Shown piece after piece: positions 11,003 through 31,699 of a stretch of 37,648 nt of DNA (position 1 is the first letter of the stretch; each line of letters begins with the position of its first letter). The notes below the pieces were generated by a model. It saw nothing but the letters and a program-made list of their open reading frames with translations, was not told where the DNA came from and did not search any database. Made by a program: the position numbers and the translations under genes. The stretch is from Mycolicibacterium chubuense (GTDB lineage: Bacteria; Actinomycetota; Actinomycetes; Mycobacteriales; Mycobacteriaceae). The stretch is from positions 1 to 37,648 of the forward strand of contig NZ_JYNX01000032.1 in assembly GCF_001044255.1 (NCBI RefSeq), read 5' to 3'.

Positions 11003-11074
11003 CGGGTGATGGTAATCGCAAGGTTTCCCGTTAACAGGAATGCCATCGGGCGGTCGGCCCGGCATGCTCGAAGC

Positions 11075-17701: not shown

Positions 17702-18043
17702 ATGGGCGCCACGTCGTTGCTGAGCTCGATCCTGAACTGGCTGCGTGCTGGTTATCCCAGCGGCGTGCCGGGTCCGGACCGGGTGCCGTTGCTGGCGCTG
17801 CTGCGCGCCACGCCACTGACCGAGGACCAACTGCGCGAGGTCATCGCGCACATCAGCGCGGAGGATGTCTCACCGGCGGTTCACGGGGCCATCGACAGCG
17901 ACGAGATCGCCGCCTTCATCGCCGATGTGACGCATCACGACGCCGGACCGGAGAACGTCGCGCGGGTCGCCGCGCGGTTGGCCGCGGCCGGATGGCCGCT
18001 CGCCGGTGTGGATCTCGGCGAGCAGCCGGCCGACGGGGATTAG
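17702..18043 (+). CDS. DUF3349-family protein (Rv3046c-like)
   Basis: A 113-residue, mostly helical acidic protein ([18 protein letters not shown], then [16 protein letters not shown]). These short mycobacterial DUF3349 proteins have no known biochemical role. In M. tuberculosis the homologue Rv3046c lies convergent to adhC (Rv3045), exactly as here, where it meets the alcohol dehydrogenase with a 4-bp stop-to-stop overlap. That conserved placement marks the left flank of the ancestral chromosomal neighbourhood. Start ATG 17702. Confidence 0.8.
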
Positions 18044-19086
18044 CGCAGCGTGGCGGTGTCGATCACGAAGCGGTAGCGCACGTCGCTGGCGAGCACCCGC
18101 TCGTACGCTTCGTTGATGTAGTCGGGCTGGATGACCTCGATCTCCGGGGTCACGTCGTGCTCGGCGCAGAAGTCGAGCATCTCCTGGGTTTCGGCGATGC
18201 CGCCGATCAGCGACCCGGACAGCCGGCGCCGACCGAAGATGAGGGCGGGCGCGGGCACCTCCATGGGGCGCTCGGGCATGCCGAGCTCCACCAGCGTGCC
18301 GTCGAGGGCCAGCAGGCCCAGGTAGTCACCCATGTCGAGGTTGGCCGACACGGTGTTGAGGATCAGGTCGAACTTGCCCTTGAGCTTCTTGAAGGTGTCG
18401 CGGTCACTGGTGGCGTAGTACTCGGACGCACCGAGGCGCAGACCGTCCTCCATCTTCTTCAGCGACTGGCTGAGAACCGTGACGTGGGCGCCCATCGCGA
18501 CCGCGATCTTGACGGCGAGATGGCCCAGACCGCCCAGACCGATCACCGCGACCTCGGTGCCCGGGCCGGCGTTCCAGTGCCGCAGCGGGGAGTAGGTGGT
18601 GATGCCGGCGCACAGCAGCGGGGCCGCCTTGTCCAGCGGGATGGACTCCGGAATGGTCAGCACGTAGTTCTCGTCGACGACGATCGCGCCGCTGTATCCG
18701 CCCTGGGTGGGCTGCCCGTCGAAGCCGACGGCGTTGTAGGTGCCCACCATGCCCGGGTTGTTGCAGTACTGCTCCTCGCCGGCCAGGCAGAACTCGCACT
18801 CGCGGCAGGAGTCCACGAAACATCCGACGCCCACGCGGTCGCCGACCGCGAACTTGGTCACCTCGGATCCGACCTCGGTGACGATCCCGGCGATCTCGTG
18901 ACCGGGCACGACCGGGTAGGCCGCCTGGCCCCACTCGTCGCGCACGGTGTGGATGTCGGAGTGGCAGATGCCGGCGAAATGGATGTCGAAGGCCACATCG
19001 TGGGGTCCGACCTCGCGACGCGTGATCGTGGTCTTCGTCAGGGGCTCGCCGGCCGCGGGGGCTGCGTAAGCGGAAACGGTGCTCAA
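18040..19086 (-). CDS. adhC: Zinc-dependent NADP alcohol dehydrogenase, AdhC type
   Basis: A 348-residue cinnamyl-alcohol-dehydrogenase-like enzyme. It has the catalytic zinc site at GICHSDIHT and GHEIAG, the structural zinc cysteines in SCRECEFC...QYC, and the Rossmann motif [13 protein letters not shown] followed by [11 protein letters not shown], typical of NADP-preferring CAD-type enzymes. It closely resembles M. tuberculosis AdhC (Rv3045), including the start STVSAYAA and the end [14 protein letters not shown]. The start is TTG 19086 with a gagga ribosome site; no ATG fits. It reduces aldehydes or oxidises alcohols in the cytosol. In M. tuberculosis fecB precedes it directly; here about 16 kb intervenes. 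Confidence 0.9.
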
Positions 19087-19121
19087 TGTCTCATCCTCTT
19101 CTCGTCTTTGGTGCAGGCGTG

Positions 19122-19138
19122 CGCCCCGAACCGGGGCG
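19122..19138. repeat. Short GC hairpin in the adhC leader
   Basis: cgccccg-aac-cggggcg: 7-bp perfect arms with a 3-nt loop, 36 bp upstream of the adhC start and about 90 bp after the tetR stop. It could terminate or attenuate read-through from tetR, or act as an operator. There is no U-tract. Confidence 0.4.
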
Positions 19139-19229
19139 TGCCGAAACCTGGGCCGCGATCCCACGGCCTCACGAACCAACACCCAGCGTGCCCCGCTTCA
19201 TCCGTCGGCAAGCGCTCCCGTGAGAAGGA

Positions 19230-19913
19230 TCACCGTGCGCCGGCGGTGAGAACCTCCGTGGTCCGGTCGTGCAGCGCATCGGGGTCGGGGACGCCGAGCA
19301 CCCGCAGACACGCGTCGGCGACGTGGCGGGGCAGCTGATCGCGGCGTTCTCCCTCGGGGGTCGACCACATGTTCACCAGCGATTCGACCAGCCGGAACGG
19401 GAGGTCGGCGGCCGCCGGGTCGACACCGGTGCCCCGCGAGATCGCCAGGCTCAGCTTCAGGTAGTGCCTGCGCAGGCGTTCGCGGTCGGAGTAGAACGGC
19501 TCGAGCCGGGCATCGCGCAACTCGGGCAGCAGGTAGAGCGCCCCCAGGTTCCACCGACCGCTGAGCAACTGGGTGCCGTCGAAGACCGCCAGCGCGTGCA
19601 ACTGCTGCGCCTCGCTCATCGCCGGGCGCGCAGCGCGCAGGGCGGGGATGAAGGACAGGGTGGGCGACACCGTCTGGCTCAGCAGCGCGCAGAGGATGTC
19701 GTCCTTGGTCTTGAAGTAGTGGTAGAGCGACGCCTGACGGATACCGACCGTTTCGGCGATGTGCCGGGTCGAGGTTCCCGCATAGCCCTGCGTGGTGAAC
19801 AATTCGCCTGCGGCATCGAGGATTTCGTCTCGGGCGGTGGTGCCGGGACGTCGCTGGGCGTGCAGACGTGGCCGTCCGGCGCGGGTCAGCGGCATGGTCC
19901 CATCGTGGCTCAT
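19230..19913 (-). CDS. TetR-family regulator, divergent to the catabolic operon
   Basis: A 227-residue regulator. The N-terminal helix-turn-helix (about 27-75) reads ARDEILDAAGELFTTQGYAG, then TSTRHIAETVGIRQASLYHYFKTK, the standard TetR/AcrR recognition domain. The C-terminal ligand domain is of the long TetR_C type (LSFIPALRAA, then GALYLLPELRDARLEPF). It is transcribed divergently from the ABC-transporter/allantoin operon, separated by about 250 bp holding a near-palindrome at 19943-19958. It is therefore the likely local repressor, responding to a substrate or intermediate. It is also 143 bp upstream of adhC on the same strand. Confidence 0.88.
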   Translation of the reverse strand: MSHDGTMPLTRAGRPRLHAQRRPGTTARDEILDAAGELFTTQGYAGTSTRHIAETVGIRQASLYHYFKTKDDILCALLSQTVSPTLSFIPALRAARPAMSEAQQLHALAVFDGTQLLSGRWNLGALYLLPELRDARLEPFYSDRERLRRHYLKLSLAISRGTGVDPAAADLPFRLVESLVNMWSTPEGERRDQLPRHVADACLRVLGVPDPDALHDRTTEVLTAGAR

Positions 19914-19942
19914 GGTCGATCCAAAGGGTATCGCCGACCATA

Positions 19943-19958
19943 TCTGTCACACGATAGA
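19943..19958. promoter_or_regulatory. Candidate TetR operator
   Basis: tctgtc-acac-gataga: a 16-bp dyad with one mismatch, 29 bp upstream of the tetR start and overlapping where its promoter should lie. Size and symmetry suit a TetR dimer. Downstream, atcggttac (19973) and attggttac (19993) repeat at a 20-bp interval and may be a second element. Confidence 0.4.
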
Positions 19959-20160
19959 AACGTCGGACACCCATCGGTTACCTCGGCCGCCGATTGGTTA
20001 CGCCAGCGACACCCACCGGGCTCGACGCACGGGAAAACTGTCGATCGACAGGCCGGTGGCCCATCGACGAGCCGCGGCAACACATTTCCCGACGAATCCT
20101 GGAGTGGTCGATTTGGGCAGCACCGCATCCACCGTCGCCGCGCCGGCGACGAGTCCGGGG

Positions 20161-22119
20161 ATGCCGCCGAACCACGACCCGGTCGCCACCGTCGCCGATC
20201 TGCGGGTGACGTTCTCCCGCAACGGACGCGACATCCACGCCCTGCGTGGCGTGTCGTTGGCCATCGCGCCGGGCGAGATCGTGGGCCTGGTCGGCGAATC
20301 CGGCTCCGGCAAGAGCGTGCTGGGCTTCAGCCTGCTCGGCCTGCTGGCCGACGGCGCACGGATCCGCGGCAGCGTGCGCGTCGCCGGCTCGGACATGGTG
20401 CCCTCGATGCCCGGGTTCGACGCCAGGAACCTGCGGAAGGTGCGCCGACTGGATCTCGGTGCCGTGTTCCAGGATCCGATGACGTCGCTGAACCCGACCA
20501 TGCGCATCGGGAGGCAGGTCGAGGAAGCCGCGGGCAGCGCCGAGGAGGCGCTGCGGCTGCTCACCGCCGTCGGCATCCCCGATCCGAAGGCGCGGATGCG
20601 CGCCTACCCGCACGAGCTGTCCGGCGGCCTGCGCCAGCGCGTGATGATCGCGATCGCGATCGCCGGCGACCCCGAGCTGATCATCGCCGACGAACCGACG
20701 ACAGCCCTCGACGTGACCGTGCAGGCGCAGGTTCTCCGGCTGCTCGAGCGGCTGCGCGACGAGATCGGCTGCAGCATCGTGCTGATCACCCACGACCTCG
20801 GCGTCGCCGCCCAGATCGCCGACCGGATCGCCGTGCTCTACGCCGGACGGATCGCTGAAATCGGGCCCACCGCAGCGCTCCTCGAGAGTCCCGCTCATCC
20901 CTACACCCACGGTCTGCTCCGATCCCGGCTGACATTGCAGACCCGACGGGACCGGCAGCTGGCCGCCCTGAGCGGCTCGGTGCCCAGCGCCGCCGCGCCG
21001 CTGCCCGGCTGCGCGTTCGTGCCGCGGTGCGCGCTGGCCGACGACGACTGCGCGAAGGCACCGCCGGACCCTGTCGCGGTGGCTCCGCAGCGGGTGAGTG
21101 CGTGCCTGCGTCCCGCAGCCCGCGTCGCCGAACTCGACGCAGTGGCAGCCCCCGATGAGGCGCCGTCGGCGCCGGCCCGCCAGCAGGGGGAGACCTCGGA
21201 GCCCGCCGTCGACCTGCGTGAGGTCACCAAGACGTTCACGGTGGCGCGCCGCTGGCTCGACCGCACCGACGGCGGCGGGAAACTACATGCGCTGCGCGGC
21301 GTTTCGGTCCAGGTCGGGCACGGCGAATCGGTGGCGCTGGTGGGGGAGAGCGGCTCGGGGAAGTCGACGTTGCTGCGGGTGATCGCGGGTCTGGAGAAGG
21401 CCACCTCCGGACAGGTGACCGTGAGCGGGGACCAGCGGCCGCAGATGGTGTTCCAGGACGCCGGTGCGTCGTTGACGCCCTGGCTGTCGGTCGGCGAGAT
21501 CATCGGTGAACGGGTCAAGGGCGGTACGCGTCGGGAGCGTGCCACCGCGGTGGCCGAGGTCCTCGAGCGTGTGGGTCTGGCTCCCGACATCGTCAAGGCG
21601 CGGGCCGGTCAGCTCTCCGGTGGTCAGCGTCAGCGGGTGGCACTGGCCCGGGCCACCGTGATTCCGCCGGCGGTGCTGCTGTGCGACGAGCCGACCAGTG
21701 CGCTCGACGTCTCACTGGCTGCGTCGGTGCTCAATCTGATCGGGCAGCTCAGGCGCTCCCTGCACATGTCCGTGGTGTTCGTCACCCACGATCTGGCCGT
21801 GGCCCGTGTCGTGGCGGACCGCATCGCGGTGATGTATCTGGGCCGCATCGTCGAGATCGGCCCCGCCGACCAGGTGATCACCCAGCCCACGCACCCCTAC
21901 ACTCAGGCGCTCGTCGACTCGATCCCCGATCTAGGTCGCGAATTGCGTTCTCTGGCAGGAGAACCCGCGAGCCCGCTGGCGCCGCCGCCGGGATGCGCGT
22001 TCCATCCGCGCTGCCCCATCGCGGTCGACGCCTGCGCCGACCCCCGCCTCGACGTCCGGCTGGAGGGCCGCCCCGGCGGCGAACACCGCGTCGCCTGCAT
22101 CGAGAGGCGGGCCCACTGA
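20161..22119 (+). CDS. Fused double ATPase of a peptide/opine-type ABC importer
   Basis: A 652-residue fusion of DppD-like and DppF-like ATPases. The first half has Walker A GESGSGKS (45-52), signature LSGGLRQR (about 153) and Walker [10 protein letters not shown] Cys-rich oligopeptide-type C-terminal segment follows ([14 protein letters not shown]). The second half has Walker [10 protein letters not shown] (about 395), LSGGQRQR (about 484) and VLLCDEP, and ends [15 protein letters not shown]. It energises the two permeases and lipoprotein encoded downstream. A GTG at 20104 would add 19 residues; ATG 20161 starts closer to the conserved domain. It is the first gene of the operon and overlaps the next by one base (tgatg). 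Confidence 0.9.
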
Positions 22120-22991
22120 TGGCGGTCGCGCTCCCCGCATCGGGTCTGATCCGGGGCCGGCAGCGACGACTGCTGACGCTGCCGGGGTCGAACTCGACGC
22201 TGCTCAACGGCATCGGCTTCGCGACGATCCTCGTCGTCACCGCGGTGGTCATCGCCGTGCCGGTGCTCGCACCCCATGACCCACTGCTGCCCGTCGGGGT
22301 ACCGCTGCAGGCGCCCGGGAAGAACGGATTCCTGCTGGGTACCGACAGCATCGGCCGCGACATCCTGTCGCGGGTGCTCTACGGCGCCCGCTCGAGCTGG
22401 TTCGCCGCACTGGTCGTGGTGGCGGTCGGACTGTTCATCGGGGGCCTGGTCGGGGTGATCGCGGGCGCGACCGGCGGCTGGGTGGACACCGTCCTGATGC
22501 GCATCACCGATGCCTTCCTGTCGCTGCCCGCTCCGGTCCTCGCGATCGCGGTGGTCGCCGCGCTGGGCCCGGGTTTCGTGCACACCCTGATCGCCGTGTC
22601 GATCGTCTGGTGGCCGTTCTATGCCCGGTTGGTGCGCGGCGAGATCGCCCGGCTGGCTGCGCGCCCGCACGTCGAGGCCGCGAAGCTGGCCGGCGTCGGA
22701 CCATGGCGGCTCGCCCGGCGGCATCTGGTGCCCGGAGCGGTCCCCAACGCCCTCGTCGCCGCAAGCCTCGACATCGGCACGCTGATCCTCACCCTGGCGT
22801 CACTGTCGTTTCTCGGCCTCGGCCAGGCCGCGCCGGCACCCGAACTCGGCGCCGACTCGGCACGCAATCTCAGTTACTTCCTGCAGCAGTGGTGGATCCC
22901 GGTGATGCCCGGTCTCGGGGTGCTGGTGCTGGCGCTGGTCGGCAACATCGCCGGAGACTGCCTGCGCAACCTCATGAAGGGCCGTGCATGA
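22119..22991 (+). CDS. ABC permease, DppC type
   Basis: A 290-residue inner-membrane permease. It has an N-terminal helix (about 31-52), the DppC-type loop PHDPLLPVGVPLQAPGKNG then LLGTDSIGRDILSRVLYG, about five further helices, and the ATPase-contact EAA loop (EAAKLAGVGPWRLARRHLVP). It forms the channel with the DppB-type partner encoded next (4-bp overlap). Start ATG 22119 lies within the stop of the ATPase gene. In Dpp and Opp operons the B-type permease usually comes first, so the order here is inverted, together with a leading ATPase gene. Confidence 0.9.
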   Translation: MAVALPASGLIRGRQRRLLTLPGSNSTLLNGIGFATILVVTAVVIAVPVLAPHDPLLPVGVPLQAPGKNGFLLGTDSIGRDILSRVLYGARSSWFAALVVVAVGLFIGGLVGVIAGATGGWVDTVLMRITDAFLSLPAPVLAIAVVAALGPGFVHTLIAVSIVWWPFYARLVRGEIARLAARPHVEAAKLAGVGPWRLARRHLVPGAVPNALVAASLDIGTLILTLASLSFLGLGQAAPAPELGADSARNLSYFLQQWWIPVMPGLGVLVLALVGNIAGDCLRNLMKGRA

Positions 22992-23992
22992 AGACCTTCG
23001 TGGTGACCCGGCTGTGCGCGATGGTGGCCATCCTGGTGGCACTGACCGCGGTGATGTTCCTGCTGCAGCACATCTCGCCGCTCGATCCCGTCAAGGCACA
23101 GCTGGGCGCGCAGGCCTCGGCGGAAGCCGTCGCGGCGCGCCGGGACGCGCTGGGCCTCAACGATCCGGTGCCCGTGCAGTTCTGGAACTATCTGACCGGC
23201 GCCGCCACGGGTGACCTCGGTACGTCCTACCGGACCCGGCACGCGGTGCTGTCCGATCTGGGCGACTTCGTCCCCGCCACAGCCGAACTCGCCCTGTACG
23301 GGCTGACGATCGCCTTGGCGCTCGCGGCACTGCTCGCATTCAGCACCACGCTCAAGTGGCCCGGAGCGGGGGTACTGCGCGCCGTGCTGTTCACCGGGTC
23401 CTCGGCGCCGATGTTCCTGCTCGGCATCCTCGGCCTGCTGGTGTTCTACAAGACCCTGGGCTGGGTGCCCGCCAACGGACGCATCGCGGTCGCCGACCCG
23501 CCCGACGGGCCGACCGGTCTGCTCACCGTCGACGGGCTGCTGCACGGCAGGCCCGACGTCACCGTCGACGCGTTGCACCACCTGATCCTGCCGGCGCTGG
23601 TGATCGCGCTGGGCCCCGCCGTCGCGATCGGCCGGGTGCTGCGGAGCAGCCTGCTCGGCGAGGTCGACAGCGACTACGCACGCACCGCCCGCGCCAAGGG
23701 GCTCTCCGAACCCGCGATCATGGCCCGGCACGTGCTCCGCAACTGCGTGGGCGCCGCACTGTCGATGACCGGTCTGCAAGTGGGGCTGATGTTCTCGGGT
23801 GTTCTCGTGGTCGAGCAGGTCTTCGGCTGGCCCGGCATCGGCCAGTACATCGCCCAGAGCATCCCGGTCGCCGACTTCCCCGCCATCGCCGGGGTCACGC
23901 TGATGCTCGGCGCCCTCTATGTCTTCGTCAACACGGTCGTGGACCTGCTTCAGGCCGCCGCCGACCCGCGCATCGCAATCACAGGAGGATAG
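22988..23992 (+). CDS. ABC permease, DppB type
   Basis: A 334-residue permease. The N-terminal helix VTRLCAMVAILVALTAVMFL is followed by a conserved segment (DALGLNDPVPVQFWNYLTG, then GDLGTSYRT), five more helices and the EAA loop (DYARTARAKGLSEPAIMARH). It ends with VEQVFGWPGIGQYIAQSI, a hallmark of DppB/OppB. An extra hydrophilic loop at about 155-195 (DPPDGPTGLLTVDGLLHG) is somewhat long. The stop TAG overlaps the following GTG start by two bases, with aggagg just upstream for the next gene. Confidence 0.9.
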   Translation: MKTFVVTRLCAMVAILVALTAVMFLLQHISPLDPVKAQLGAQASAEAVAARRDALGLNDPVPVQFWNYLTGAATGDLGTSYRTRHAVLSDLGDFVPATAELALYGLTIALALAALLAFSTTLKWPGAGVLRAVLFTGSSAPMFLLGILGLLVFYKTLGWVPANGRIAVADPPDGPTGLLTVDGLLHGRPDVTVDALHHLILPALVIALGPAVAIGRVLRSSLLGEVDSDYARTARAKGLSEPAIMARHVLRNCVGAALSMTGLQVGLMFSGVLVVEQVFGWPGIGQYIAQSIPVADFPAIAGVTLMLGALYVFVNTVVDLLQAAADPRIAITGG

Positions 23993-24640
23993 GTGCCGAA
24001 ACAGCCACTCATCGTGGGCAATCCCGTTCTGGTCGTCGTCGACATCCAGGAGGGCGGCGGCATGTCCGCCGACGACGCCGGTATCCCCGTGATGCCCGGC
24101 CACGGCGATCGTGTCGCCCGGGCGGAGCGGTTGGTCGCCGCCGCTCGCCGTGCCGGGATCCCGATCGTCTTCTTCCAGGAGGTGCACCGTCCCAGTGGCA
24201 TCGACTTCGGCCGGGAGCTCGACGGTGTGGAAGGCGAACACTGTGTGGAGGGCAGGCCCGGCACCGACCTCGAGCCGACCCTGCGACCGATCCTCGACGG
24301 TCCCAACCACGAGTTCCACATCGTCAAGCGGCGCTACTCCGGTTTCATCGGCACCGAGTTCGAGATCGTGCTGTCCGGTCTGAAAGCCGACACGCTGATC
24401 CTGATCGGCGGGTTGACCGACGTCTGCGTGCACTACACCTTCGCCGACGCGCACCAGCGCGACTTCTACGTCCGGGTGGTGACCGACTGCGTGGGCGGCT
24501 CCTCCCAGTACCGCCACGATGCCGCGCTGGATGCGATGGAGTACCTGCAGGCCGGTGCGCAGCGCAGCACCGACGAGATCCTCGACGCGTTCGCGTCGCT
24601 GACGTCCCCCGACGCCGTCCTCGAAGGAGCGCTCCGATGA
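23993..24640 (+). CDS. Isochorismatase-family cysteine hydrolase
   Basis: A 215-residue hydrolase with the family triad: Asp17 (VVVDIQEG), Lys112 (HIVKRRYSGF) and Cys145 (LTDVCVHYT). Members split amide or carbamoyl bonds: N-carbamoylsarcosine, ureidoacrylate, biuret and nicotinamide. The KRRYSGF loop and the location beside allantoinase and allantoicase favour a ureido or carbamoyl substrate, releasing ammonia or carbamate. It is placed between the permease and binding-protein genes, an unusual position for an enzyme, which implies its activity is closely tied to the imported compound. Start GTG 23993 behind aggagg. The exact substrate is not determinable. Confidence 0.88.
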   Translation: MPKQPLIVGNPVLVVVDIQEGGGMSADDAGIPVMPGHGDRVARAERLVAAARRAGIPIVFFQEVHRPSGIDFGRELDGVEGEHCVEGRPGTDLEPTLRPILDGPNHEFHIVKRRYSGFIGTEFEIVLSGLKADTLILIGGLTDVCVHYTFADAHQRDFYVRVVTDCVGGSSQYRHDAALDAMEYLQAGAQRSTDEILDAFASLTSPDAVLEGALR

Positions 24641-26217
24641 TCCGTCGCCTGAAAGCGGTGTCGGCGCTCGCCGCCGCGGCCGCGTTGATCCTGAGCGGCT
24701 GCGGCGGCTCGGACTCGGGCAGCAGCACCCCCAGCGCCGCCCCGACGGACAAGGTGCTGCACCTGTCCTTCCTGCAGGATCCGGGCCAGCCGCCGGACCC
24801 CGACATCTTCTACGCCGGCCAGGGCCTGCTGTTGACGACCAACACCTACGAGGGCCTGCTGCAGTACAAGGCCGGCACCGACAAACCGGAACTGGAACCG
24901 CTTCTGGCGACCGAGTGGACCGCGTCGCCGGACAACAAGGTCTTCACGTTCAAGCTCCGTGAGGGCGTCACGTTCCACGACGGCACCCCGTTCACCTCGG
25001 CGGCGGTCAAGGCATCCTTCGACCGCAGGCTCGCCGTCGACCAGGGGCCGGCCTACATGGTCAAGGACGTGGAATCGGTGACCACGCAGGGCGACTACGG
25101 CGTCACGATCACGCTCAAGGCGCCGAACTCGGCGTTCCTGGACTACCTGGCGTGCCCGTACGGACCGCGGATGCTCAGCCCTGAGGGTCTGCGCAAGAAC
25201 GCGGGCAGCGACAACGCGCAGGGGTACCTCACCACCCACGACCTGGGCACCGGGCCCTATGTGCTCACGGCCGCCGACGTCGGATCGCGGTATGCGCTCG
25301 AGGCCTACCCCGGATACTGGGGCACCAAGCCGTATTTCGAGAAGGTGGAGATCCCCGTCATCACCGACGTGTCGGCGCAGCAGTTGCAGTTCAACAACGG
25401 TCAGCTCGCCGCGATCCTGCACGACCTGCCGTCCTCGGCGGTGCAGTCGTATCTGGACAACAAGGCCTACGCGAACTACTCGCTGCCGACGATGATGTCG
25501 AACTACCTCTACGTCAACCCGCACAAGGGCATGCTGACCGACGCCAAGAACCGGACGGCCCTGATGCAGGCCATCAACGTCGACGAACTGGTCAAGCAGA
25601 CCTACTTTGGGCGCGGCGATGTAGCCGGGCAGATCTACCCCACCAACATGATGGGAGAGCAGTACGCCAAACAGGAAGTGCCGCATGACCCGTCGGTGCT
25701 CGCCGGCATCGCGGGCGGCCTGCCCGCCGACCAGAAGGCCATCACCGTCGGCTACGACTCGAGCAACCCGGACAACCAGTTGATCAGCAACCTGATCCAG
25801 ACCCAGCTGGCCGCGGCCGGTCTGACCGCCAAGGTGCAGGCCTATCCGACGTCGGAGATCTACGGCTGGATCGGCACCGACGGGCAGGCCGCGCCCGAGG
25901 TCTTCACGGCGTTGGCCTGGCCCGACGCGCCGTCCCCGTACACGTGGGGGCACATCTCCTGGGATCCCGACGGCGGCCTGAATTACCTGGGCTGCTCGGC
26001 GCCACCGGTGACCGACGCGCTGGCCCGCGGTCTGCCTACCGGGTCCGACGCCGACTTCTCGGCCGCCGGCCTGGAAGCGGTGAAGACGGGGTGCTGGCTC
26101 AACGTGGCCGACGTCAAGGACTTCATGGTCGCCCAGCCGTGGCTCAAGGGCATCGAGGCCGCCCATGTCGTGACCAACCCCAATTCGCTGCGGCTGGCGG
26201 CGTTGTCGGTCGGCTGA
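24637..26217 (+). CDS. ABC substrate-binding lipoprotein (SBP family 5)
   Basis: A 526-residue secreted lipoprotein. The signal peptide ends at the lipobox LSGC with Cys22, followed by a Gly/Ser-rich linker. The family-5 (Dpp/Opp/NikA) domain begins VLHLSFLQDPGQPPDPD and has the hallmark FKLREGVTFHDGTPFTSAAVKASFDR around residues 100-128. It captures the substrate outside the membrane for the fused ATPase and two permeases. Family 5 proteins bind peptides, nickel, opines and assorted small amides, so the ligand here may well not be a peptide. The start overlaps the hydrolase stop by 4 bp. Two Cys near the C-terminus (GCSAPP, GCWLN) could form a disulfide. Confidence 0.92.
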   Translation: MIRRLKAVSALAAAAALILSGCGGSDSGSSTPSAAPTDKVLHLSFLQDPGQPPDPDIFYAGQGLLLTTNTYEGLLQYKAGTDKPELEPLLATEWTASPDNKVFTFKLREGVTFHDGTPFTSAAVKASFDRRLAVDQGPAYMVKDVESVTTQGDYGVTITLKAPNSAFLDYLACPYGPRMLSPEGLRKNAGSDNAQGYLTTHDLGTGPYVLTAADVGSRYALEAYPGYWGTKPYFEKVEIPVITDVSAQQLQFNNGQLAAILHDLPSSAVQSYLDNKAYANYSLPTMMSNYLYVNPHKGMLTDAKNRTALMQAINVDELVKQTYFGRGDVAGQIYPTNMMGEQYAKQEVPHDPSVLAGIAGGLPADQKAITVGYDSSNPDNQLISNLIQTQLAAAGLTAKVQAYPTSEIYGWIGTDGQAAPEVFTALAWPDAPSPYTWGHISWDPDGGLNYLGCSAPPVTDALARGLPTGSDADFSAAGLEAVKTGCWLNVADVKDFMVAQPWLKGIEAAHVVTNPNSLRLAALSVG

Positions 26218-27044
26218 TGGCGACGCTGGTCCGCCGCAGCGGCGTTCGACGCATCGTCCTGCTGACGCTGGGATGGGAGGACCTGCCGAAGAACGTGTCG
26301 GTCTACGGCCTTCCTCCCGAGGAGCGGTTCCGGTGCCCGGTGCCCGGGGTGCTGTTACAGACCGATGGCGGCTGGGTGCTGTTGGACACCGGCTTCAACA
26401 CCGCGCTGATCCGGGACCCGTATCTGCGGCGGCGGTACTTCCCGTCCGCGGAGTACCAGCCGGTGCTGCCGGGTCCCGGTGAGCCCATCGAGGAGTCACT
26501 GTCGGAGATCGGGATCGACGTCGACGACATCGGGCTGGTCGCGGTGTCGCATCTGCACGTCGACCACGCGGGCGGCCTGAAGCTGTTCGCCGGCCGGGTG
26601 CCGGTGCACGCCCAGCGGCGCGAACTCGACTACGGTCTGTCCAATCATCCCGAGCCGCAGCGGCATTCCATCTTCCGGGTGGACTTCGACGATCCCGCCA
26701 TCGACTGGCGGCTCGCCGACGGGGAGGCCGAGATCGCGCCGGGTATCACCGCGATCCCGACGTACGGGCACACGCCGGGCCATCAGAGCTTCCTGGTCGA
26801 ACTCGACGAGTCCGTCGGCGGGGGCGGATACGTCTTCGCGTTCGACGCGGCCGATCTGACCGAGAACATCGAGGGGGAACTGCCGATCGGCGGTTTCATC
26901 GACGTCGACCCGCAGGACACCGTCGAACCGATCCGCCGGCTCAAGAGGCTGGCCCGGGACAAGGGCTACCCGCTGATTCCCGGCCACGACCCGCATGTGT
27001 GGCCGGAGATGACACAGCACTTCCACGAGCGGTTCGCGCACTGA
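26217..27044 (+). CDS. Metallo-beta-lactamase-fold hydrolase (lactonase-like)
   Basis: A 275-residue MBL-fold enzyme. The metal motif is SHLHVDHAGG (His112, His114, Asp116, His117), with further ligands in GHTPGHQS, FAFDAADL and PGHDPHVW. This order, including the second Asp and the C-terminal His, is that of the AHL-lactonase/glyoxalase II-like group, which opens cyclic esters or amides using two zinc or iron ions. In this operon it might hydrolyse a cyclic imide or lactone intermediate; that is inference. It overlaps the binding-protein stop by one base (tgatg), and its own stop overlaps the allantoinase start the same way. Confidence 0.85.
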   Translation: MATLVRRSGVRRIVLLTLGWEDLPKNVSVYGLPPEERFRCPVPGVLLQTDGGWVLLDTGFNTALIRDPYLRRRYFPSAEYQPVLPGPGEPIEESLSEIGIDVDDIGLVAVSHLHVDHAGGLKLFAGRVPVHAQRRELDYGLSNHPEPQRHSIFRVDFDDPAIDWRLADGEAEIAPGITAIPTYGHTPGHQSFLVELDESVGGGGYVFAFDAADLTENIEGELPIGGFIDVDPQDTVEPIRRLKRLARDKGYPLIPGHDPHVWPEMTQHFHERFAH

Positions 27045-28342
27045 TGGATCTGGTGCTGCGCGCCGAGCGGGTCCTCGTCGGCGGCGAGATCCGGCCCGCA
27101 GCGGTTGCTGTCGCGCAGGGGACCGTCGTCGACATCGGGCCTCCGGATGCGGGCTACGCCGCGCAGGACGACGTGTGGGTGCCGGCGGGCGCGGTCCTGC
27201 TGCCCGGGTTCGTCGACACGCATGTGCACATCAACGCACCCGGCACCGACTGGGAGGGCTTCGCCACCGCGACCGAGGCCGCGGCCCGCGCGGGTATCAC
27301 CACCGTGGTGGACATGCCGCTGGACTCGGTCCCGGTGACCACCACCGTCGAGGCGCTCCGGATCAAACAGGCTGCCGCGCAGAGCGACTCCTGTGTCGAC
27401 GTGGCGTTCTGGGGTGGTGTGGTGCCCGGCAACCTCGGTGCGCTGGGATCGCTGGCCGAGGCGGGGGTGCGGGGCTTCAAGTGCTTCCTGGCCGACTCCG
27501 GCAACCCCGACTTCCCCCACCTGTCGCCGGCGCAGTTCCGCGCGGCGGCCGCCGAGGTCGCCGCATTCGACGCGGTGCTGCTCGTGCACGCCGAAAGCCA
27601 CGCCGTCCTCGCAGCCAGCCCGTCACCGAGCGGAGCCGGTTACGCATCGTTTCTGGCGTCGCGTCCGGACTCCGCCGAGGTCGACGCCGTCGCGCTGGCC
27701 CTCGACACCGCACGCGGCACCGGAGTGCGCCTACACCTCGTGCACGTGTCGAGTGGGCAGACGCTCGAGCTGATCGCCGACGCCAAGGCAGCCGGCGTCG
27801 CTGTGACGGCGGAGACTTGTCCGCACTACCTCACCTTCGCCGCCGAAACGATCCCCGACGGCGCCACCCAGTTCGCCGCGTGCCCGCCGATCCGGGCCTG
27901 TGCCAACCGCGATCAGCTGTGGAGCGCGCTCGCGGACGGCACGTTGGACATGATCGTCTCCGACCACTCGCCGTGCTCACCGGAACTCAAGGGCGACGGC
28001 GACTTCCGAGACGTCTTCGCCGGCATCAGCTCCCTTCAGCTGAGCCCCAGCGCGGCCTGGACGCAGGCCGCCGAGCGCGGCTTCGGCCTCGCGGACCTCA
28101 GCCGGTGGATGTCCGAGCGGCCCGCCCGGCTGGCCGGTTTCGCCGACCGCGGCCGCATCTTCGTCGGCGCGCGCGCCGATCTGTGTGCCTTCGACCCGGA
28201 CACGGCCGACACCGTCCACGCGGCCGAGCTGCGTCACCGCCACCCGGTGAGCCCCTACGACGGGTCGACGCTGCGCGGAGGGGTGCTGGCAACGTGGGTC
28301 GCCGGCGACGCGGTCTACCGGTCCGCCGGGGTCGCGGCATGA
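27044..28342 (+). CDS. allB: Allantoinase (cyclic amidohydrolase)
   Basis: A 432-residue amidohydrolase. Metal ligands are His60 and His62 (PGFVDTHVHINAPG), the bridging Lys146 (RGFKCFLA), His in LLVHAESH, His in LHLVHVSSG and Asp at about 306 (IVSDHSPC). TAETCPHYL is shared with allantoinases. HINAPGTDWEGFATAT is the allantoinase version of the loop, where dihydropyrimidinases and dihydroorotases differ. It opens the hydantoin ring of allantoin to allantoate. The allantoicase gene two positions downstream supports this. A related cyclic ureide cannot be excluded. It overlaps the neighbouring genes at both ends. Confidence 0.9.
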   Translation: MDLVLRAERVLVGGEIRPAAVAVAQGTVVDIGPPDAGYAAQDDVWVPAGAVLLPGFVDTHVHINAPGTDWEGFATATEAAARAGITTVVDMPLDSVPVTTTVEALRIKQAAAQSDSCVDVAFWGGVVPGNLGALGSLAEAGVRGFKCFLADSGNPDFPHLSPAQFRAAAAEVAAFDAVLLVHAESHAVLAASPSPSGAGYASFLASRPDSAEVDAVALALDTARGTGVRLHLVHVSSGQTLELIADAKAAGVAVTAETCPHYLTFAAETIPDGATQFAACPPIRACANRDQLWSALADGTLDMIVSDHSPCSPELKGDGDFRDVFAGISSLQLSPSAAWTQAAERGFGLADLSRWMSERPARLAGFADRGRIFVGARADLCAFDPDTADTVHAAELRHRHPVSPYDGSTLRGGVLATWVAGDAVYRSAGVAA

Positions 28343-29091
28343 GAATCCTGGTGCTCAACCCCAACACGTCACCGACGATGACGGCCGAGATCGCCGTCGC
28401 CGCGACCGCGGCTGCTCATCCCGGAACCGACATCGTCTGCTGTGCACCGCGATTCGGGTCGACGGCCATCGATTCGGCTGCCGAGAGCTACCTGTCGGCC
28501 GTCGGGGTGATGGACGCCGTCGAGATTCTGCTCGCCGACGGCGCCTTCGACTACGACGCGGTGGTGCTCGCCGGCTTCGGCGAGCACGGCCGCGACGCAC
28601 TGGCCGAGATGCTCACCGTTCCCGTGTTCGACATCGCCGAGTGCGCCGCGCATGTCGCCACGCTGATCGGCCGGCGGTTCTCCGTGGTGACGACGCTGGC
28701 CCGCTCCATCGCGCCGATCGAGGACCGGCTGCTGCTGGCCGGTCTCGACGCGCACTGCGCGTCCGTGCGGGCATGCGGACTCGGCACCGCCGAGGTGGAC
28801 GCCGACCCGGCCGGCGCGGTCCGGGCCATCGTCGAGGAGGCGGTCCGTGCGGTCACCGAGGACGGCGCCGACGTGGTCTGCCTGGGCTGTGCCGGTATGG
28901 CCGGGGTGACGACCGCGATCTCGGACGAGGTAGGGGTGCCCGCCGTCGACGGCGTCGCGGCGGCCGTCGCCCTGGCGCAGGCGGTGGTGGGCCTCGGGTT
29001 GTCGACCAGCAAGGCGGGCGTCTACGCGCCCGGGCCGGACAACCCACGCAGTCACTGGCCGCTGTCGCGCGCACTGGGGATGAGCTCGTGA
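28339..29091 (+). CDS. Asp/Glu/hydantoin racemase-family protein
   Basis: A 250-residue member (MRILVLNPNTSPTMT start) of the hydantoin/allantoin racemase group. Hydantoin racemases use two cysteines, in A-C-F-G-D-P-G and L-G-C-A-G-M. Here the second is intact (Cys184, CLGCAGMAG), but the first position is Gly79 (LAGFGEHGRDAL). Arylmalonate decarboxylase, in the same fold, also has Gly plus a single Cys. An allantoin racemase role fits the context, since allantoinases are stereospecific, yet the missing Cys argues for caution: decarboxylation or isomerisation is possible. It overlaps allB by 4 bp and the allantoicase start by 4 bp (GTGA). Confidence 0.82.
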   Translation: MRILVLNPNTSPTMTAEIAVAATAAAHPGTDIVCCAPRFGSTAIDSAAESYLSAVGVMDAVEILLADGAFDYDAVVLAGFGEHGRDALAEMLTVPVFDIAECAAHVATLIGRRFSVVTTLARSIAPIEDRLLLAGLDAHCASVRACGLGTAEVDADPAGAVRAIVEEAVRAVTEDGADVVCLGCAGMAGVTTAISDEVGVPAVDGVAAAVALAQAVVGLGLSTSKAGVYAPGPDNPRSHWPLSRALGMSS

Positions 29092-30110
29092 TCGGCCCCG
29101 GCGCTGTGGATCTCGCGTCGCGTCGGCTCGGGGGCAGTGTCGTGGCCGCCAGCGACGAATCCTTCGGCGTCAAGGAACGCCTCATCGACCCGTCCGAGCC
29201 GGCGTTCGTCCCCGGCACCTACGATCTGCGCGGCGAAGTGGTCGACGGCTGGGAGACCCGTAGGCATGCCGGCCCGGACGGCGACTGGGTGATCGTCCGC
29301 CTGGGCGCACCGGGGCGGCTGTGCACCGTGGACGTCGACACCCGGTTCTTCTCCGGCAATCATCCGACCAGCTGCCGCGTCGACGCGTGCGTGCTCGGCC
29401 TCACCGACGACCCGACCGATCCCGGCACCGGCTGGGTGGAGCTGACGCCGTGGACCGTACTGCACCCCGATTCGTCCAATCCGTTGACGATCGCCGACCC
29501 CAGGCGGTGGACCCACCTGCGGCTGCGGCTGGGATCCGACGGCGGGGTGGCCCGTCTGCGCGCCTACGGCGAGGTGATTCCGGATCCGCTGTCCTGGACC
29601 GACGTCAGCGTCGAGGTGTCCGGGGTCGAACAGGGTGGCCGGGTCGAATGGTCCAGCGACAGCCACTATTCCGATGCGCACGCGCTCATCCGCCCCGACC
29701 GGCCCCGCGACATGGGAGACGGCTGGGAGACGCGCAGGCGGCGCGACATCGGCCCCGAGACCCATGACGCGGTGATGGTGTCGTTCGCCGCGCCCGCCCA
29801 TCTGCGCCGGCTCGAGATCGATACCTCCTATTTCGTGTTCAACGCCTCGCGGGAGGTCTCGGTGCTGGGCAGTAGGCATTGCCCGGACGGCGAGAACGGT
29901 TGGGCGCTGGTGCCGTTCGACATCCCCGTACTGGCCCGCACACCACTGGCCGCCGACGCGCGGCACACGTTCACCGTCGACGTGCCCGAGATCTGCGCGC
30001 TGCGGGTGCAGGCGTATCCCGACGGTGGACTCGCCCGGGTGCGCGCCATCGGAACGCCCACGCCGGACGGTATGCGCCGGCTGCGGAAGCGGTGGGAGGA
30101 GACACAGTGA
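29088..30110 (+). CDS. alc: Allantoicase
   Basis: A 340-residue protein made of two tandem allantoicase domains. The first begins LASRRLGGSVVAASDESFG and has DGWETRRHAGPDGDWVIVRL; the second repeats this as DGWETRRRRDIGPETHDAVMV. Conserved DVDTRFFSGNHP and EIDTSYFVFNA mark the same strand in each half. It hydrolyses allantoate to ureidoglycolate and urea. Start GTG 29088 overlaps the racemase stop. Its stop is immediately followed by the next gene's ATG. A 34-nt scrap closely matching bases 29948-29981 of this gene lies 2 kb downstream at 31899-31932. No gene for ureidoglycolate breakdown is recognised in the window. Confidence 0.93.
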   Translation: MIGPGAVDLASRRLGGSVVAASDESFGVKERLIDPSEPAFVPGTYDLRGEVVDGWETRRHAGPDGDWVIVRLGAPGRLCTVDVDTRFFSGNHPTSCRVDACVLGLTDDPTDPGTGWVELTPWTVLHPDSSNPLTIADPRRWTHLRLRLGSDGGVARLRAYGEVIPDPLSWTDVSVEVSGVEQGGRVEWSSDSHYSDAHALIRPDRPRDMGDGWETRRRRDIGPETHDAVMVSFAAPAHLRRLEIDTSYFVFNASREVSVLGSRHCPDGENGWALVPFDIPVLARTPLAADARHTFTVDVPEICALRVQAYPDGGLARVRAIGTPTPDGMRRLRKRWEETQ

Positions 30111-30638
30111 ATGAGTGAGGTGTCGATCGCCCGGTGCCGGGGACTGTGGCGCCGCACGCTGCTCGTCGGCGCCGACGGCACGCGGGACACGGGCACCGAC
30201 GTGGTGTGGCTGCAGGGCCTGACGCGCTACGTCGATTCACGCGGCTTCGCGGGCACGCTGACCCAGAACAGCGACGTCTTCTCGTGGCATCGCGATGTCG
30301 ATGTCGAGCCCGGCGAGCTTCCCGACGCGGGCCGGATGCGCTGGGAGGCAGACACACTGGTCGAGACCGGGGTGCACGAGACCTACGAGGAGCACTGGGT
30401 CCGCGAGTGCGGGGCCACCGAACCGGCCGGGGCGCTGCTGTTGTCCGCCGGTTCCCGAGCGCCCGCGGTGCTGGTGCGCGTCGGGGGCCTGATCGGCTGG
30501 GCCACGGCGGCGGGGGCGCGCATCGAGCACGTGCGGCACGGGGACTGGCAGGTTCACGACGACAGCCACGGTGCGCACGTCATCGCCGACGGGCAGCGCT
30601 GGGCGGTCGTCACACGAGAAGGGGACGTCGAATTGTGA
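30111..30638 (+). CDS. Unknown 175-residue beta-rich protein in the allantoin operon
   Basis: Starts directly after the allantoicase stop. The sequence alternates hydrophobic and charged residues in short strands (GLWRRTLLVGADGTRDTGT, VVWLQGLTRYVDSR, FSWHRDVDV, YEEHWVREC), suggesting an antiparallel barrel. The pattern W-R-R-x-L-L, V-W-L-Q, Y-V-D-x-R recalls the lipocalin-like HRI1 family, but I cannot confirm this. No signal peptide or membrane helix is seen. Its stop overlaps the dioxygenase GTG by 3 bases. Position at the end of an allantoin pathway makes it a candidate for handling ureidoglycolate or the dioxygenase substrate; this is inference only. Confidence 0.75.
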   Translation: MSEVSIARCRGLWRRTLLVGADGTRDTGTDVVWLQGLTRYVDSRGFAGTLTQNSDVFSWHRDVDVEPGELPDAGRMRWEADTLVETGVHETYEEHWVRECGATEPAGALLLSAGSRAPAVLVRVGGLIGWATAAGARIEHVRHGDWQVHDDSHGAHVIADGQRWAVVTREGDVEL

Positions 30639-31699
30639 GCAGCGCAGCACCATCTCAGGCATCCCGGTCCTTCACCGAGGTGCCGGTCGTCGACATCAGC
30701 GGGCTGTTCTCCGACCAGCACGCCGACCGTGAGCGGGTCGCCGCCGCGATCGGGGTGGCGGCGCGCGACGTGGGCTTCTTCTACATCAGCGGGTCCGGGA
30801 TCGACGAGACACTCTTCGACGGGTTGTTGGCCGCGGCGAAGCAGTTCTTCGCGCTCCCGCTCGAGGAGAAGATGCGCACCTACATCGGGCTGTCCCGGTG
30901 TCACCGGGGGTATGTGCCGGTGGGCGAGGAGGGCGTCGAATCGGGAGCGATCGGAGATCTCAAGGAGGCGTTCGACACCGCGTTGGATCTGCCCGTCGAC
31001 GATCCCGACCATGTGGCGGGCAATCCGATGCTGGGACCGAACACGTGGCCGGATCTTCCCGGTTTCGCCGAAGCGGTGACCGCCTACTACGACGCGGCGC
31101 TGGCCGTCGGGCACCGACTGCTGTGGGCGTTCGCGGTCGCGCTCGGTGAGAACCCCGGCGTCTTCTCCCGCCACGCCACCAAGACGCCGAGTCAACTGCG
31201 CCTGGTGCACTATCCGTACAACCCCGACGCACACGACGCGCAGGGGATCGGGGCGCACACCGACTACGAATGCTTCACCCTGCTCAAACCGACCGCGCCG
31301 GGCCTGGAGGTGCTGAACGGCGCGGGGGAGTGGATCGACGTCCCGCCGATCGAGGGCACGTTCGTGGTCAACATCGGTGACCTGCTGGAGCTGTGGACTA
31401 ACGGCGAGTTCGTCGCGACCAGTCACCGCGTCCGCAAGGTGGCCGAGGAGCGTTATTCGTTCCCGTTGTTCTTCAACGTCGACTACCACACCGAGGTCAG
31501 CCCGCTGCCGCAGTTCGTCACGCCGGGTGCCCCGCCGCGGCCGTCGCTGCGCGCCGGCGAACACCTCTTCGCCCAGACCGCACAGACATTCGCGTATCTG
31601 CGACGGCGCATCGACACCGGCGAGCTGGTGCTGCCGGACGGGGCACTGCAGCCCAACCAATTCGGGCAGCAGGCGCGCCATGCCGACCGGATCAGTTGA
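30635..31699 (+). CDS. Isopenicillin-N-synthase-like Fe(II)/2-oxoglutarate dioxygenase
   Basis: A 354-residue oxygenase. The N-terminal DIOX_N region (VPVVDISGLFSDQ, VGFFYISGSGID) is followed by the core with iron ligands His208, Asp210 (GAHTDYE) and His264 (TSHRVRK). The 2-oxoglutarate-binding Arg273 and Ser275 lie in RYSFPLFFNVDY. The enzyme would hydroxylate or cyclise a small substrate using oxygen and 2-oxoglutarate. Fungal XanA shows that enzymes of this chemistry can hydroxylate xanthine, but XanA belongs to a different subfamily. Last gene of the operon. Its final 12 codons lie in a 77-bp direct repeat whose second copy is at the intact fecB 3' end. Confidence 0.9.
   Translation: MSSAAPSQASRSFTEVPVVDISGLFSDQHADRERVAAAIGVAARDVGFFYISGSGIDETLFDGLLAAAKQFFALPLEEKMRTYIGLSRCHRGYVPVGEEGVESGAIGDLKEAFDTALDLPVDDPDHVAGNPMLGPNTWPDLPGFAEAVTAYYDAALAVGHRLLWAFAVALGENPGVFSRHATKTPSQLRLVHYPYNPDAHDAQGIGAHTDYECFTLLKPTAPGLEVLNGAGEWIDVPPIEGTFVVNIGDLLELWTNGEFVATSHRVRKVAEERYSFPLFFNVDYHTEVSPLPQFVTPGAPPRPSLRAGEHLFAQTAQTFAYLRRRIDTGELVLPDGALQPNQFGQQARHADRIS

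What the first reader, a model, noticed from the sequence alone, without database searches (positions are those of the whole stretch)
19230..31699. Self-contained operon for importing and opening an allantoin/hydantoin-like compound
A TetR gene faces ten genes that mostly overlap by 1-4 bp: a fused ATPase, two permeases, an isochorismatase-type hydrolase, a binding lipoprotein, an MBL-fold hydrolase, allantoinase, a racemase-family protein, allantoicase, an unknown beta-rich protein and a dioxygenase. Allantoinase and allantoicase are clear. The Dpp-type transporter, the lactonase-like enzyme, the carbamoyl-type hydrolase and the dioxygenase are not part of any standard allantoin pathway I know. 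The set may degrade a more complex ureide, imide or N-heterocycle that converges on allantoate.
Basis: partly seen in the sequence, partly recalled or inferred. Interest (0 to 1): 0.75.

Follow-up and report, generated by a model that had tools for sequence, protein, structure and literature searches.

The report
Mycobacterial methylguanidine-type nitrogen-scavenging operon
A soil mycobacterium carries a compact gene set that appears to import a methylated, nitrogen-rich molecule, strip its methyl group with a recently discovered enzyme pair and recover the nitrogen, with altered allantoin enzymes where some relatives carry the guanidine pathway.

Summary
In detail: a TetR gene faces eleven (not ten) tightly packed genes at 19230-31699. 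The allantoin reading is only partly right. The "unknown beta-rich protein" and the "dioxygenase" are homologues of MgdL and MgdH, the N-(hydroxymethyl)guanidine lyase and methylguanidine hydroxylase described in Vreelandella boliviensis in 2025 (MgdH 60% identical; both catalytic residues of MgdL kept). The TetR is AmtR-like; its promoter has two CTGTC-N4-GACAG-type boxes 94 bp apart, a layout shared with guanidine operons of relatives. Of 118 genomes of the genus, 25 carry the core. The allantoinase-racemase-allantoicase cassette is optional (14 full, 2 partial, 9 absent). The guanidine module sits next door in 7 of 10 loci without a full cassette and in 0 of 13 with one (flanks in view; few independent events). 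In five core proteins tested, no column consistently separates the forms apart from the dioxygenase's ends. The cassette is divergent: 14 of 14 allantoinases compared lack a conserved loop Arg; allantoicase is about 40% identical to the canonical kind, which coexists in 11 of 15 genomes. Best reading: an AmtR-type nitrogen operon built on MgdH/MgdL demethylation of a methylguanidino (or methylureido) compound, with a diverged allantoin cassette. The imported substrate is unidentified.

The parts
19230..19913 (-). TetR-family repressor of the AmtR type
   Evidence: Best PDB hit 5e57 'Transcription regulator AmtR' 185 bits; next five entries (TetR regulators and AmtR) 108-120 bits; then 56 bits
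19944..19957 (+). AmtR-type operator box 1, CTGTC-ACAC-GATAG (one mismatch)
   Evidence: relatives share TTTCTGTCACACGACAGAAA there
20038..20051 (+). AmtR-type operator box 2, CTGTC-GATC-GACAG (perfect), 94 bp from box 1
   Evidence: at least one exact box in 22 of 22 core loci (besides the window) whose TetR-ATPase region is held
20161..22119 (+). Fused Dpp/Opp-type ABC ATPase (start inferred)
   Evidence: PRK11308 473.7 bits
22119..22991 (+). ABC permease 1
   Evidence: PF00528
22988..23992 (+). ABC permease 2
   Evidence: conserved partner in the clusters; not scanned for families here
23993..24640 (+). Isochorismatase-type cysteine hydrolase; D17, K112, C145 in 25 of 25 clusters (that these are the catalytic triad is recalled)
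   Evidence: PF00857; residues; best PDB 3eef 61.7 bits, 6xjm biuret hydrolase 53 bits
24637..26217 (+). Family-5 solute-binding lipoprotein (lipobox LSGC)
   Evidence: PF00496 218.6 bits; PDB 8z1z/1dpe dipeptide-binding protein 106-108 bits
26217..27044 (+). MBL-fold hydrolase, AiiA/AttM lactonase-like; H112, H114, D116, H117, H185, D210, H257 in 25 of 25
27044..28342 (+). Divergent allantoinase (hydantoinase clan), metal ligands (assignment recalled) kept, loop Arg missing
28339..29091 (+). Allantoin-racemase-like Asp/Glu/hydantoin racemase
   Evidence: PF01177; PDB 5lfd allantoin racemase 230 bits
29088..30110 (+). Divergent allantoicase
30111..30638 (+). MgdL homologue (N-(hydroxymethyl)guanidine lyase family); D42 and R44 match catalytic D49 and R51
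30635..31699 (+). MgdH homologue (2OG/Fe(II) methylguanidine hydroxylase), 60% identical to V. boliviensis MgdH
18040..19182 (-). Zinc alcohol/aldehyde dehydrogenase next to the TetR, also upstream in L018, L023, L024, L062, L063 and L064; role unclear, may not belong

Best explanation
This is a nitrogen-scavenging operon under an AmtR-type repressor. Its core imports a small nitrogen-rich compound through a Dpp-type ABC transporter, releases a methylguanidine-like (or methylurea-like) unit from it with the MBL and isochorismatase-type hydrolases, and removes the methyl group with an MgdH dioxygenase (hydroxymethyl hemiaminal) and an MgdL lyase (formaldehyde plus the free guanidine or urea). 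In part of the genus the guanidine carboxylase module sits next door; in this form the operon instead holds allantoinase, allantoin racemase and allantoicase that have diverged from the purine-salvage set, most likely to act on an allantoin-like, methylated or guanidino relative of allantoin. Shown by sequence: the homologies, kept catalytic residues, AmtR-type regulator and boxes, and the modular gene content. Inferred: N-demethylation as the core reaction, the roles of MBL and isochorismatase, the control by this TetR, and the altered specificity of the cassette. Unknown: the imported substrate; oxidised creatinine products are one guess.
For: MgdH 60% identical over 352 aa to the dioxygenase of the V. 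boliviensis LC1 operon, in a record of that strain (L163) whose gene order and two riboswitches match the published operon. MgdL: D49/R51 kept, profile E 4e-14. 72 of the 80 fetched MgdH relatives have an MgdL relative within 2.5 kb; of the 34 outside the genus 13 show guanidine-pathway genes in view. Guanidine-I riboswitches in 6 of 19 loci scanned, all Halomonas/Vreelandella/Paraburkholderia. Full-length urea/guanidine carboxylase is over the cut-off in 12 of 118 genus genomes, all 12 among the 31 with an MgdH of 57% identity or more. The same spaced box pair lies in second-group guanidine loci L030, L075-L077, L157. In the five core proteins tested no column separates cassette from non-cassette forms, apart from positions 3-11 and 350 of the dioxygenase, where few rows align. 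Cassette enzymes are distinct from the canonical set.
Against: MgdL identity to the characterised enzyme is only 30% over 127 aa and its fold could not be predicted. No guanidine riboswitch in the window or in the 7 mycobacterial loci scanned. The window genome has no full-length guanidine carboxylase; it has a GdmH-like ureohydrolase elsewhere, but that gene is in only 5 of 25 core genomes against 22 of the other 93, so it does not explain the form. V. boliviensis needs neither an MBL nor an isochorismatase for methylguanidine, so the substrate here must differ. The exchange pattern rests on few independent events. 8 of 80 loci show no MgdL nearby.
Confidence: 0.55

Rival explanations
1. Two ordinary functions in one nitrogen operon: MgdH/MgdL scavenge methylguanidine, and the cassette is plain allantoin use, both under one AmtR-type switch.
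For: Allantoinase and allantoicase pass the NCBIfam cut-offs and the racemase is nearest allantoin racemase; metal ligands (assignment recalled) kept. The cassette comes and goes as a block.
Against: Allantoicase only just passes (281.8 v 277.9) and is about 40% identical to canonical allantoicases, which coexist in 11 of the 15 core genomes that have the cluster kind; the loop Arg is missing in 14 of 14 cluster allantoinases compared; no PF01014 uricase in the window genome (other urate oxidases not sought).
Confidence: 0.25
2. The operon degrades N-methylated hydantoins or allantoins (for example from methylxanthines or oxidised creatinine): the cassette splits them to methylurea, and the MgdH/MgdL pair here demethylates methylurea to urea for urease.
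For: Window genome has urease and no full-length guanidine carboxylase; the cassette lies between MBL and MgdL inside the operon; explains why this form needs no guanidine module.
Against: MgdH keeps 60% identity and MgdL keeps conserved Glu and Trp positions of the family; no column separates forms with and without the guanidine module in the five proteins tested; MgdH of V. boliviensis consumed O2 only with methyl- and dimethylguanidine among the compounds tested.
Confidence: 0.2
3. One reading: a complex ureide or imide is opened and converges on allantoate, and the dioxygenase is an entry oxidation.
For: Gene content of the window alone.
Against: The core, dioxygenase included, exists without the allantoin genes in 9 of 25 clusters.
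Confidence: 0.08
4. Peptide importer plus quorum-quenching lactonase and unrelated hydrolases.
For: SBP nearest dipeptide-binding proteins by sequence; MBL nearest AiiA/AttM.
Against: MBL scores 109.5 and 105.7 bits against cut-offs of 390 and 375; AmtR-type regulator and MgdH/MgdL partners.
Confidence: 0.03

Closest known systems
[quoted passage not shown]
   Same: MgdH (60% identity) and MgdL (catalytic Asp/Arg kept) as neighbours; in seven genus loci also a carboxylase and allophanate hydrolase next door, with UAAP-type genes in view in four.
   Different: AmtR-type repressor and boxes instead of guanidine riboswitches; Dpp-type (family 5) importer instead of the V. boliviensis type; extra MBL and isochorismatase; in the window no carboxylase module but a divergent allantoin cassette.
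AmtR regulon of Mycobacterium smegmatis (PMC4222082)
   Same: AmtR-like regulator; its targets include 'urf1/2', a urea carboxylase and an amidase, the gene types found beside seven core loci here.
   Different: Here the regulator lies beside a different operon with importer, MgdH/MgdL and, in the window, the allantoin cassette.
Canonical urate-allantoin genes of the same genus (G133:C58: uricase, allantoinase and allantoicase within about 4 kb; L180 by eye)
   Same: Allantoinase and allantoicase family members.
   Different: About 40% (allantoicase) and 49% (allantoinase) identical to the cluster kinds; the canonical allantoinases have the loop Arg; no urate genes in the cluster.
Guanylurea hydrolase (isochorismatase hydrolase-like family) of Pseudomonas mendocina (PMC9800807)
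   Same: Same superfamily, also feeds a guanidine pathway.
   Different: 28% identity over 202 aa to the cysteine hydrolase NDO41_26705 of plasmid pMET-2, which I take to be the assayed protein; too far to transfer the activity.

Membership tests
MgdH methylguanidine hydroxylase | Fe(II) facial triad HxD...H and 2OG-binding RxS (motifs recalled) | tested here: met
   H208, D210, H264, R273, S275 in 25 of 25 clusters
MgdH methylguanidine hydroxylase | Close sequence kinship with the characterised enzyme | tested here: met
   60% over 352 aa, 409 bits
MgdH methylguanidine hydroxylase | Hydroxylates methylguanidine | not testable with these tools
   Needs enzyme assay
MgdH/MgdL operon | Guanidine riboswitch control as in V. 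boliviensis | tested here: not met
   None in the window or in L022, L061, L064, L093, L098, L157, L158 at Rfam gathering scores; AmtR-type boxes instead
MgdL N-(hydroxymethyl)guanidine lyase | Catalytic Asp49 and Arg51 | tested here: met
   D42 and R44 in the window; Asp in 24 of 24 aligned rows and Arg in 24 of 25 (one Q) over the clusters
MgdL N-(hydroxymethyl)guanidine lyase | Beta-barrel fold with guanidinium-binding Glu, Asp, Trp | tested here: inconclusive
   E85, E94, W96 in 25 of 25, W33 in 24 of 24; the residue numbers are not in the text I read; fold not predicted
AmtR-controlled operon | AmtR-type TetR and conserved palindromic boxes | tested here: met
   that CTGTC-N4-GACAG is the mycobacterial AmtR site is recalled
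AmtR-controlled operon | Repression by this TetR and nitrogen response | not testable with these tools
   Needs gel shift and expression data
Canonical allantoin pathway | Family score of allantoinase and allantoicase | tested here: met
   482.7 v 357.85 and 281.8 v 277.9 bits
Canonical allantoin pathway | Conserved loops PGRTxWEGF and MPLN of allantoinase | tested here: not met
   Arg absent and Asn94 replaced by Asp in 14 of 14 cluster allantoinases compared; both present in 2 of 2 canonical genus sequences and in 3hm7, 8hfd, 3e74
Canonical allantoin pathway | Uricase in the genome | tested here: not met
   PF01014 absent in G000; present in 9 of 31 genomes searched, 2 of the 14 with a full cassette
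Guanidine carboxylase operon | UAAP1/2, carboxylase, allophanate hydrolase | tested here: not met
   Not in the window; no full-length carboxylase in G000
Quorum-quenching AHL lactonase | NCBIfam cut-off for AiiA/AttM | tested here: not met
   105.7 and 109.5 bits v 375 and 390

The most novel reading that the evidence does not exclude
A so far undescribed nitrogen pathway: AmtR-type repressors of actinobacteria sense guanidine or methylguanidine, and one operon imports a natural methylguanidino ring compound (for example oxidised creatinine), cuts it with an MBL and an isochorismatase-type enzyme, demethylates it with MgdH/MgdL, and finishes it either by the guanidine carboxylase route or by an allantoinase-racemase-allantoicase trio that has been re-purposed for guanidino or methylated analogues of allantoin.
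Probability: 0.3. Interest if true: 0.75.

Novelty: new variant of a known kind. Interest (0 to 1): 0.55.

Why it matters
The 2025 paper describes MgdH and MgdL in a halophile and calls natural sources of methylguanidine elusive apart from abiotic decay of creatinine (PMC12508155). The same pair, inside a recurrent mycobacterial operon with a dedicated importer and two extra hydrolases, offers a way to find a source. It also bears on an open question: when tested, urea and amino acids did not release M. smegmatis AmtR from DNA (PMC4222082), and the gene content here suggests guanidine or methylguanidine as the effector to try. Divergent allantoin enzymes in the same operon could be a case of re-purposed purine catabolism.

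Tried and rejected
Rejected or unproven: (a) a plain allantoin operon, because the core persists without the cassette. (b) Resemblance of the unknown protein to yeast HRI1 (recalled): not tested, since the structure job was interrupted and the tool then switched off. (c) A form-specific change of MgdH/MgdL: no discriminating column in the five proteins tested (dioxygenase, unknown, MBL, SBP, isochorismatase) except at the ends of the dioxygenase; ATPase, permeases and TetR were not tested this way. (d) Guanidinase GdmH as the stand-in for guanidine carboxylase in cassette genomes: present in the window genome but not enriched, 5 of 25 core genomes v 22 of the other 93; of seven candidates picked from the ureohydrolase search two (L176, L178) were not of this kind. 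(e) Isochorismatase as guanylurea hydrolase: only 28% identity. (f) Terminator after the operon: none found by the consensus scan. (g) Aspartate/asparagine test of the carboxylase (guanidine v urea): the position is not in the passages I read and the printed alignment was cut, so not tested. (h) Mutual exclusion of cassette and guanidine module: naive Fisher p 0.0005, but on the tree the cassette label changes 5 times and the module 2 times and only 3 independent pairs exist, so it is not significant once kinship is counted. (i) Context of isochorismatase homologues on plasmids: contexts vary (nitrile hydratase, phosphotriesterase-family enzymes); no substrate named; the record held no annotation.

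Results against the reading: 8 of 80 MgdH relatives show no MgdL within 2.5 kb at the threshold used, some of them on short contigs; phylum-wide the MgdL profile hit 5 of 396 genomes, 1 of them outside the genus; 13 of 19 loci scanned (and the window) have no guanidine riboswitch.

L019 and L068 were left out of the neighbour test because the contig ends; L066 is a second region of G108 and not a cluster; L065 was left out of the column test; allantoin-enzyme pieces under 80% of the length were left out. G075 of the second group was not fetched.


Full report
Observation. The window lies in an unnamed 5.9-Mb genome. Its genus-mates include records named Mycobacterium/Mycolicibacterium: for example contig G076:C11 and Mycobacterium sp. 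852013-51886 contig_19 both have 197,901 bases. A TetR gene (19230-19913, minus) faces eleven genes from 20161 to 31699; with the starts I chose, 8 of 10 junctions overlap by 1 or 4 bp and 2 abut.

Conservation. A dioxygenase at least 74% identical is found in 25 of 118 genomes of the genus, the window's included (the G108 match reads over one TAG). All 25 loci are in hand. In 23 the order TetR | ATPase-permease-permease-isochorismatase-SBP-MBL-...-unknown-dioxygenase is complete; in two (L019, L068) the contig end cuts it, with the visible part in the same order. The allantoinase-racemase-allantoicase block between MBL and unknown is full in 14, partial in 2 (L020 no racemase and a broken allantoinase; L065 no allantoicase) and absent in 9. 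One of the 14 (L028) has a split allantoinase and another (L067) a shortened match. The core without the block also occurs in Nocardia alni (L128, isochorismatase not seen) and a Marmoricola MAG (L162).

What the unknown and the dioxygenase are. A scan of named genomes with the dioxygenase alignment kept the best 80 loci of at least 562 relatives. In Halomonas/Vreelandella the gene lies in an operon with an ABC importer, UAAP1, UAAP2, a urea/guanidine carboxylase, a relative of the unknown protein and allophanate hydrolase. Guanidine-I and guanidine-II riboswitches are in the four such loci scanned (L149, L150, L155, L163), and guanidine-I riboswitches flank the gene in the two Paraburkholderia loci (L164, L165); the other 13 loci scanned, 7 of them mycobacterial, and the window have none. 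This is the operon in which Sinn et al. 2025 (PMC12508155; I saw the outline, parts 1-3 of 7 of the text, the Discussion and word passages) showed that MgdH hydroxylates methylguanidine and that MgdL splits N-(hydroxymethyl)guanidine, with Asp49 and Arg51 needed. L163 is a record of V. boliviensis LC1 with that gene order. The window dioxygenase is 60% identical to its MgdH. The unknown protein is 30% identical over 127 aa to its MgdL, profile E 4e-14, and keeps the Asp and Arg (D42, R44), which are conserved over the clusters except for one Gln in place of Arg. Of the 80 loci, 72 have an MgdL relative within 2.5 kb; of the 34 outside the genus, 27 have it and 13 show guanidine-pathway genes in view. 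The paper's main text mentions neither mycobacteria, actinobacteria, allantoin nor isochorismatase, and paper searches listed no paper that joins them.

Link to guanidine inside the genus. Six further genomes have a 57-63% dioxygenase. In L030 (families) and L075 (ORFs) the MgdL-like domain is fused to the C-terminus of an allophanate hydrolase, after a carboxylase and before the dioxygenase, an SSS symporter and a TetR; L157 shows the same fusion, and L158 is the named record of the L075 contig, with UAAP1/2 upstream. G007 (L029) differs: no full-length carboxylase over cut-off and an MgdL ORF of its own. Full-length urea/guanidine carboxylase (TIGR02712 over cut-off) is present in 12 of 118 genomes: 7 of the 25 core genomes and 5 of these 6, and 0 of the remaining 87. 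In those 7 core genomes carboxylase and allophanate hydrolase lie directly upstream of the TetR (L020, L021, L022, L061, L064, L069, L070); UAAP-type genes are in view in four of them (L021 one, L022, L061 and L064 both), the others being cut before that point. None of the 13 full-cassette loci with a flank in view (1.3-5 kb, more in the window) has them: 0 of 13 v 7 of 10, naive Fisher p 0.0005. The tree allows few independent tests, so this exclusion is a pattern and not a proof. In the five core proteins tested no column separates the forms apart from the dioxygenase's ends.

Regulation. The TetR is nearest AmtR structures (5e57, 185 bits). Between TetR and ATPase the relatives share TTTCTGTCACACGACAGAAA and a second CTGTC-N4-GACAG. 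At least one exact box is in 22 of 22 fetched core loci with that region held, and two boxes 94-96 bp apart in 18 of them. The window has one perfect box and one with a mismatch, 94 bp apart. A pair 95 bp apart also occurs in second-group loci L030, L075 (=L158), L076, L077 and L157 and in Geodermatophilus L147; L029 has none. In the window alone, CTGTC-N4-GACAG at one mismatch gives 4 matches against 1.67 expected, and 13 of 100 shuffles reach 4, so the support comes from conservation. M. smegmatis AmtR controls a permease, two 'urf' genes, a urea carboxylase and an amidase; urea and amino acids did not affect its DNA binding (PMC4222082, section 10 and passages). That CTGTC-N4-GACAG is its site is recalled.

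The allantoin cassette. An allantoicase is found in 34 of 118 genomes; cluster copies score lower than canonical ones, and 11 of the 15 core genomes with the cluster kind also have a canonical one (not G000, G019, G008, G090). Identity between kinds is about 40% (45% for the extra copy in L066). Cluster allantoinases keep H60, H62, K146, H182, H234 and D307 (metal ligands, recalled) but all 14 compared lack the Arg of PGRTxWEGF and have Asp for Asn at position 94 and Ala for Lys at 278 relative to two canonical genus sequences; the solved allantoinases 3hm7, 8hfd and 3e74 have the Arg and the Asn. The racemase is closest to allantoin racemase. The window genome has no PF01014 uricase, has urease (urease over cut-off in 29 of 31 genomes searched, one of them weakly), has only the cluster allantoicase, and has a GdmH-like ureohydrolase elsewhere (best PDB chains 508 and 490 bits, next 163; that these two chains are guanidinases is recalled). 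So the cassette is allantoin-like, open in the window, divergent and not fed by that uricase.

How it most likely works. Import by the family-5 SBP/ABC system; hydrolysis by MBL and isochorismatase-type enzymes, whose motif residues are kept in 25 of 25; methyl hydroxylation by MgdH; formaldehyde release by MgdL; then further breakdown by the cassette. Homology, residue conservation, box conservation and modularity are shown; the order of steps and the substrate are inferred. Oxidised creatinine products are a candidate because abiotic decay of creatinine is the one source of methylguanidine named in PMC12508155. A Streptomyces plasmid joins a TetR (40%), a similar importer and isochorismatase (58%) to two phosphotriesterase-family proteins and RidA without MgdH/MgdL, which suggests that importer and isochorismatase form a smaller reusable unit.

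Verdict. A real, conserved operon; a new variant combining known parts (MgdH/MgdL demethylation, AmtR-type control, allantoin-family enzymes). The odds given overlap: the best statement and the first two rivals share the MgdH/MgdL core, so they do not sum to one. Other papers: PMC12186494 and PMC9800807 passages; PMC5137332 whole text; the rest seen only in search listings.

Noticed in passing
L030:12045-14546, L075:8572-11028 (same contig as L158), L157: MgdL-like domain fused to the C-terminus of allophanate hydrolase in mycobacterial guanidine operons.
   Followed up: partly
L132, L133, L135 (Zavarzinia): Two tandem MgdH-like dioxygenases with an MgdL relative and an MBL-fold protein of 27-29% identity, no carboxylase in view.
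   Followed up: no
L021:15105-17506 (same locus as L104); also L102, L105: A second SBP and MBL copy after the dioxygenase; in L105 the SBP copies are in pieces.
   Followed up: no
L020, L028, L065: Decaying cassettes: broken or missing allantoinase, racemase or allantoicase, and a split MgdL match in L028.
   Followed up: partly
L172:8320-9477: GdmH-like ureohydrolase in the window genome followed by a carbon-nitrogen hydrolase; an SSS-like symporter (by eye) lies beside it in L173 and L174; 27 of 118 genus genomes have it.
   Followed up: partly
L167 (Streptomyces plasmid NZ_CP107787.1): TetR, amidohydrolase, Dpp-type importer, isochorismatase (58%), two phosphotriesterase-family proteins and RidA: a related import-and-hydrolysis operon without MgdH/MgdL.
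   Followed up: partly
L171 (Gloeocapsopsis dulcis plasmid): Isochorismatase homologue (45%) beside nitrile hydratase genes.
   Followed up: no
window 12205-14394 (+): Xanthine dehydrogenase/aldehyde oxidase-type molybdopterin subunit, with histidine kinase genes at 8270-9484 and 9500-11065.
   Followed up: no
L061:3032-3163 (-), seen again as L098:11451-11582 (+): ALIL pseudoknot (Rfam RF01497) a little beyond the dioxygenase end of one cluster; the two loci are the same contig.
   Followed up: no
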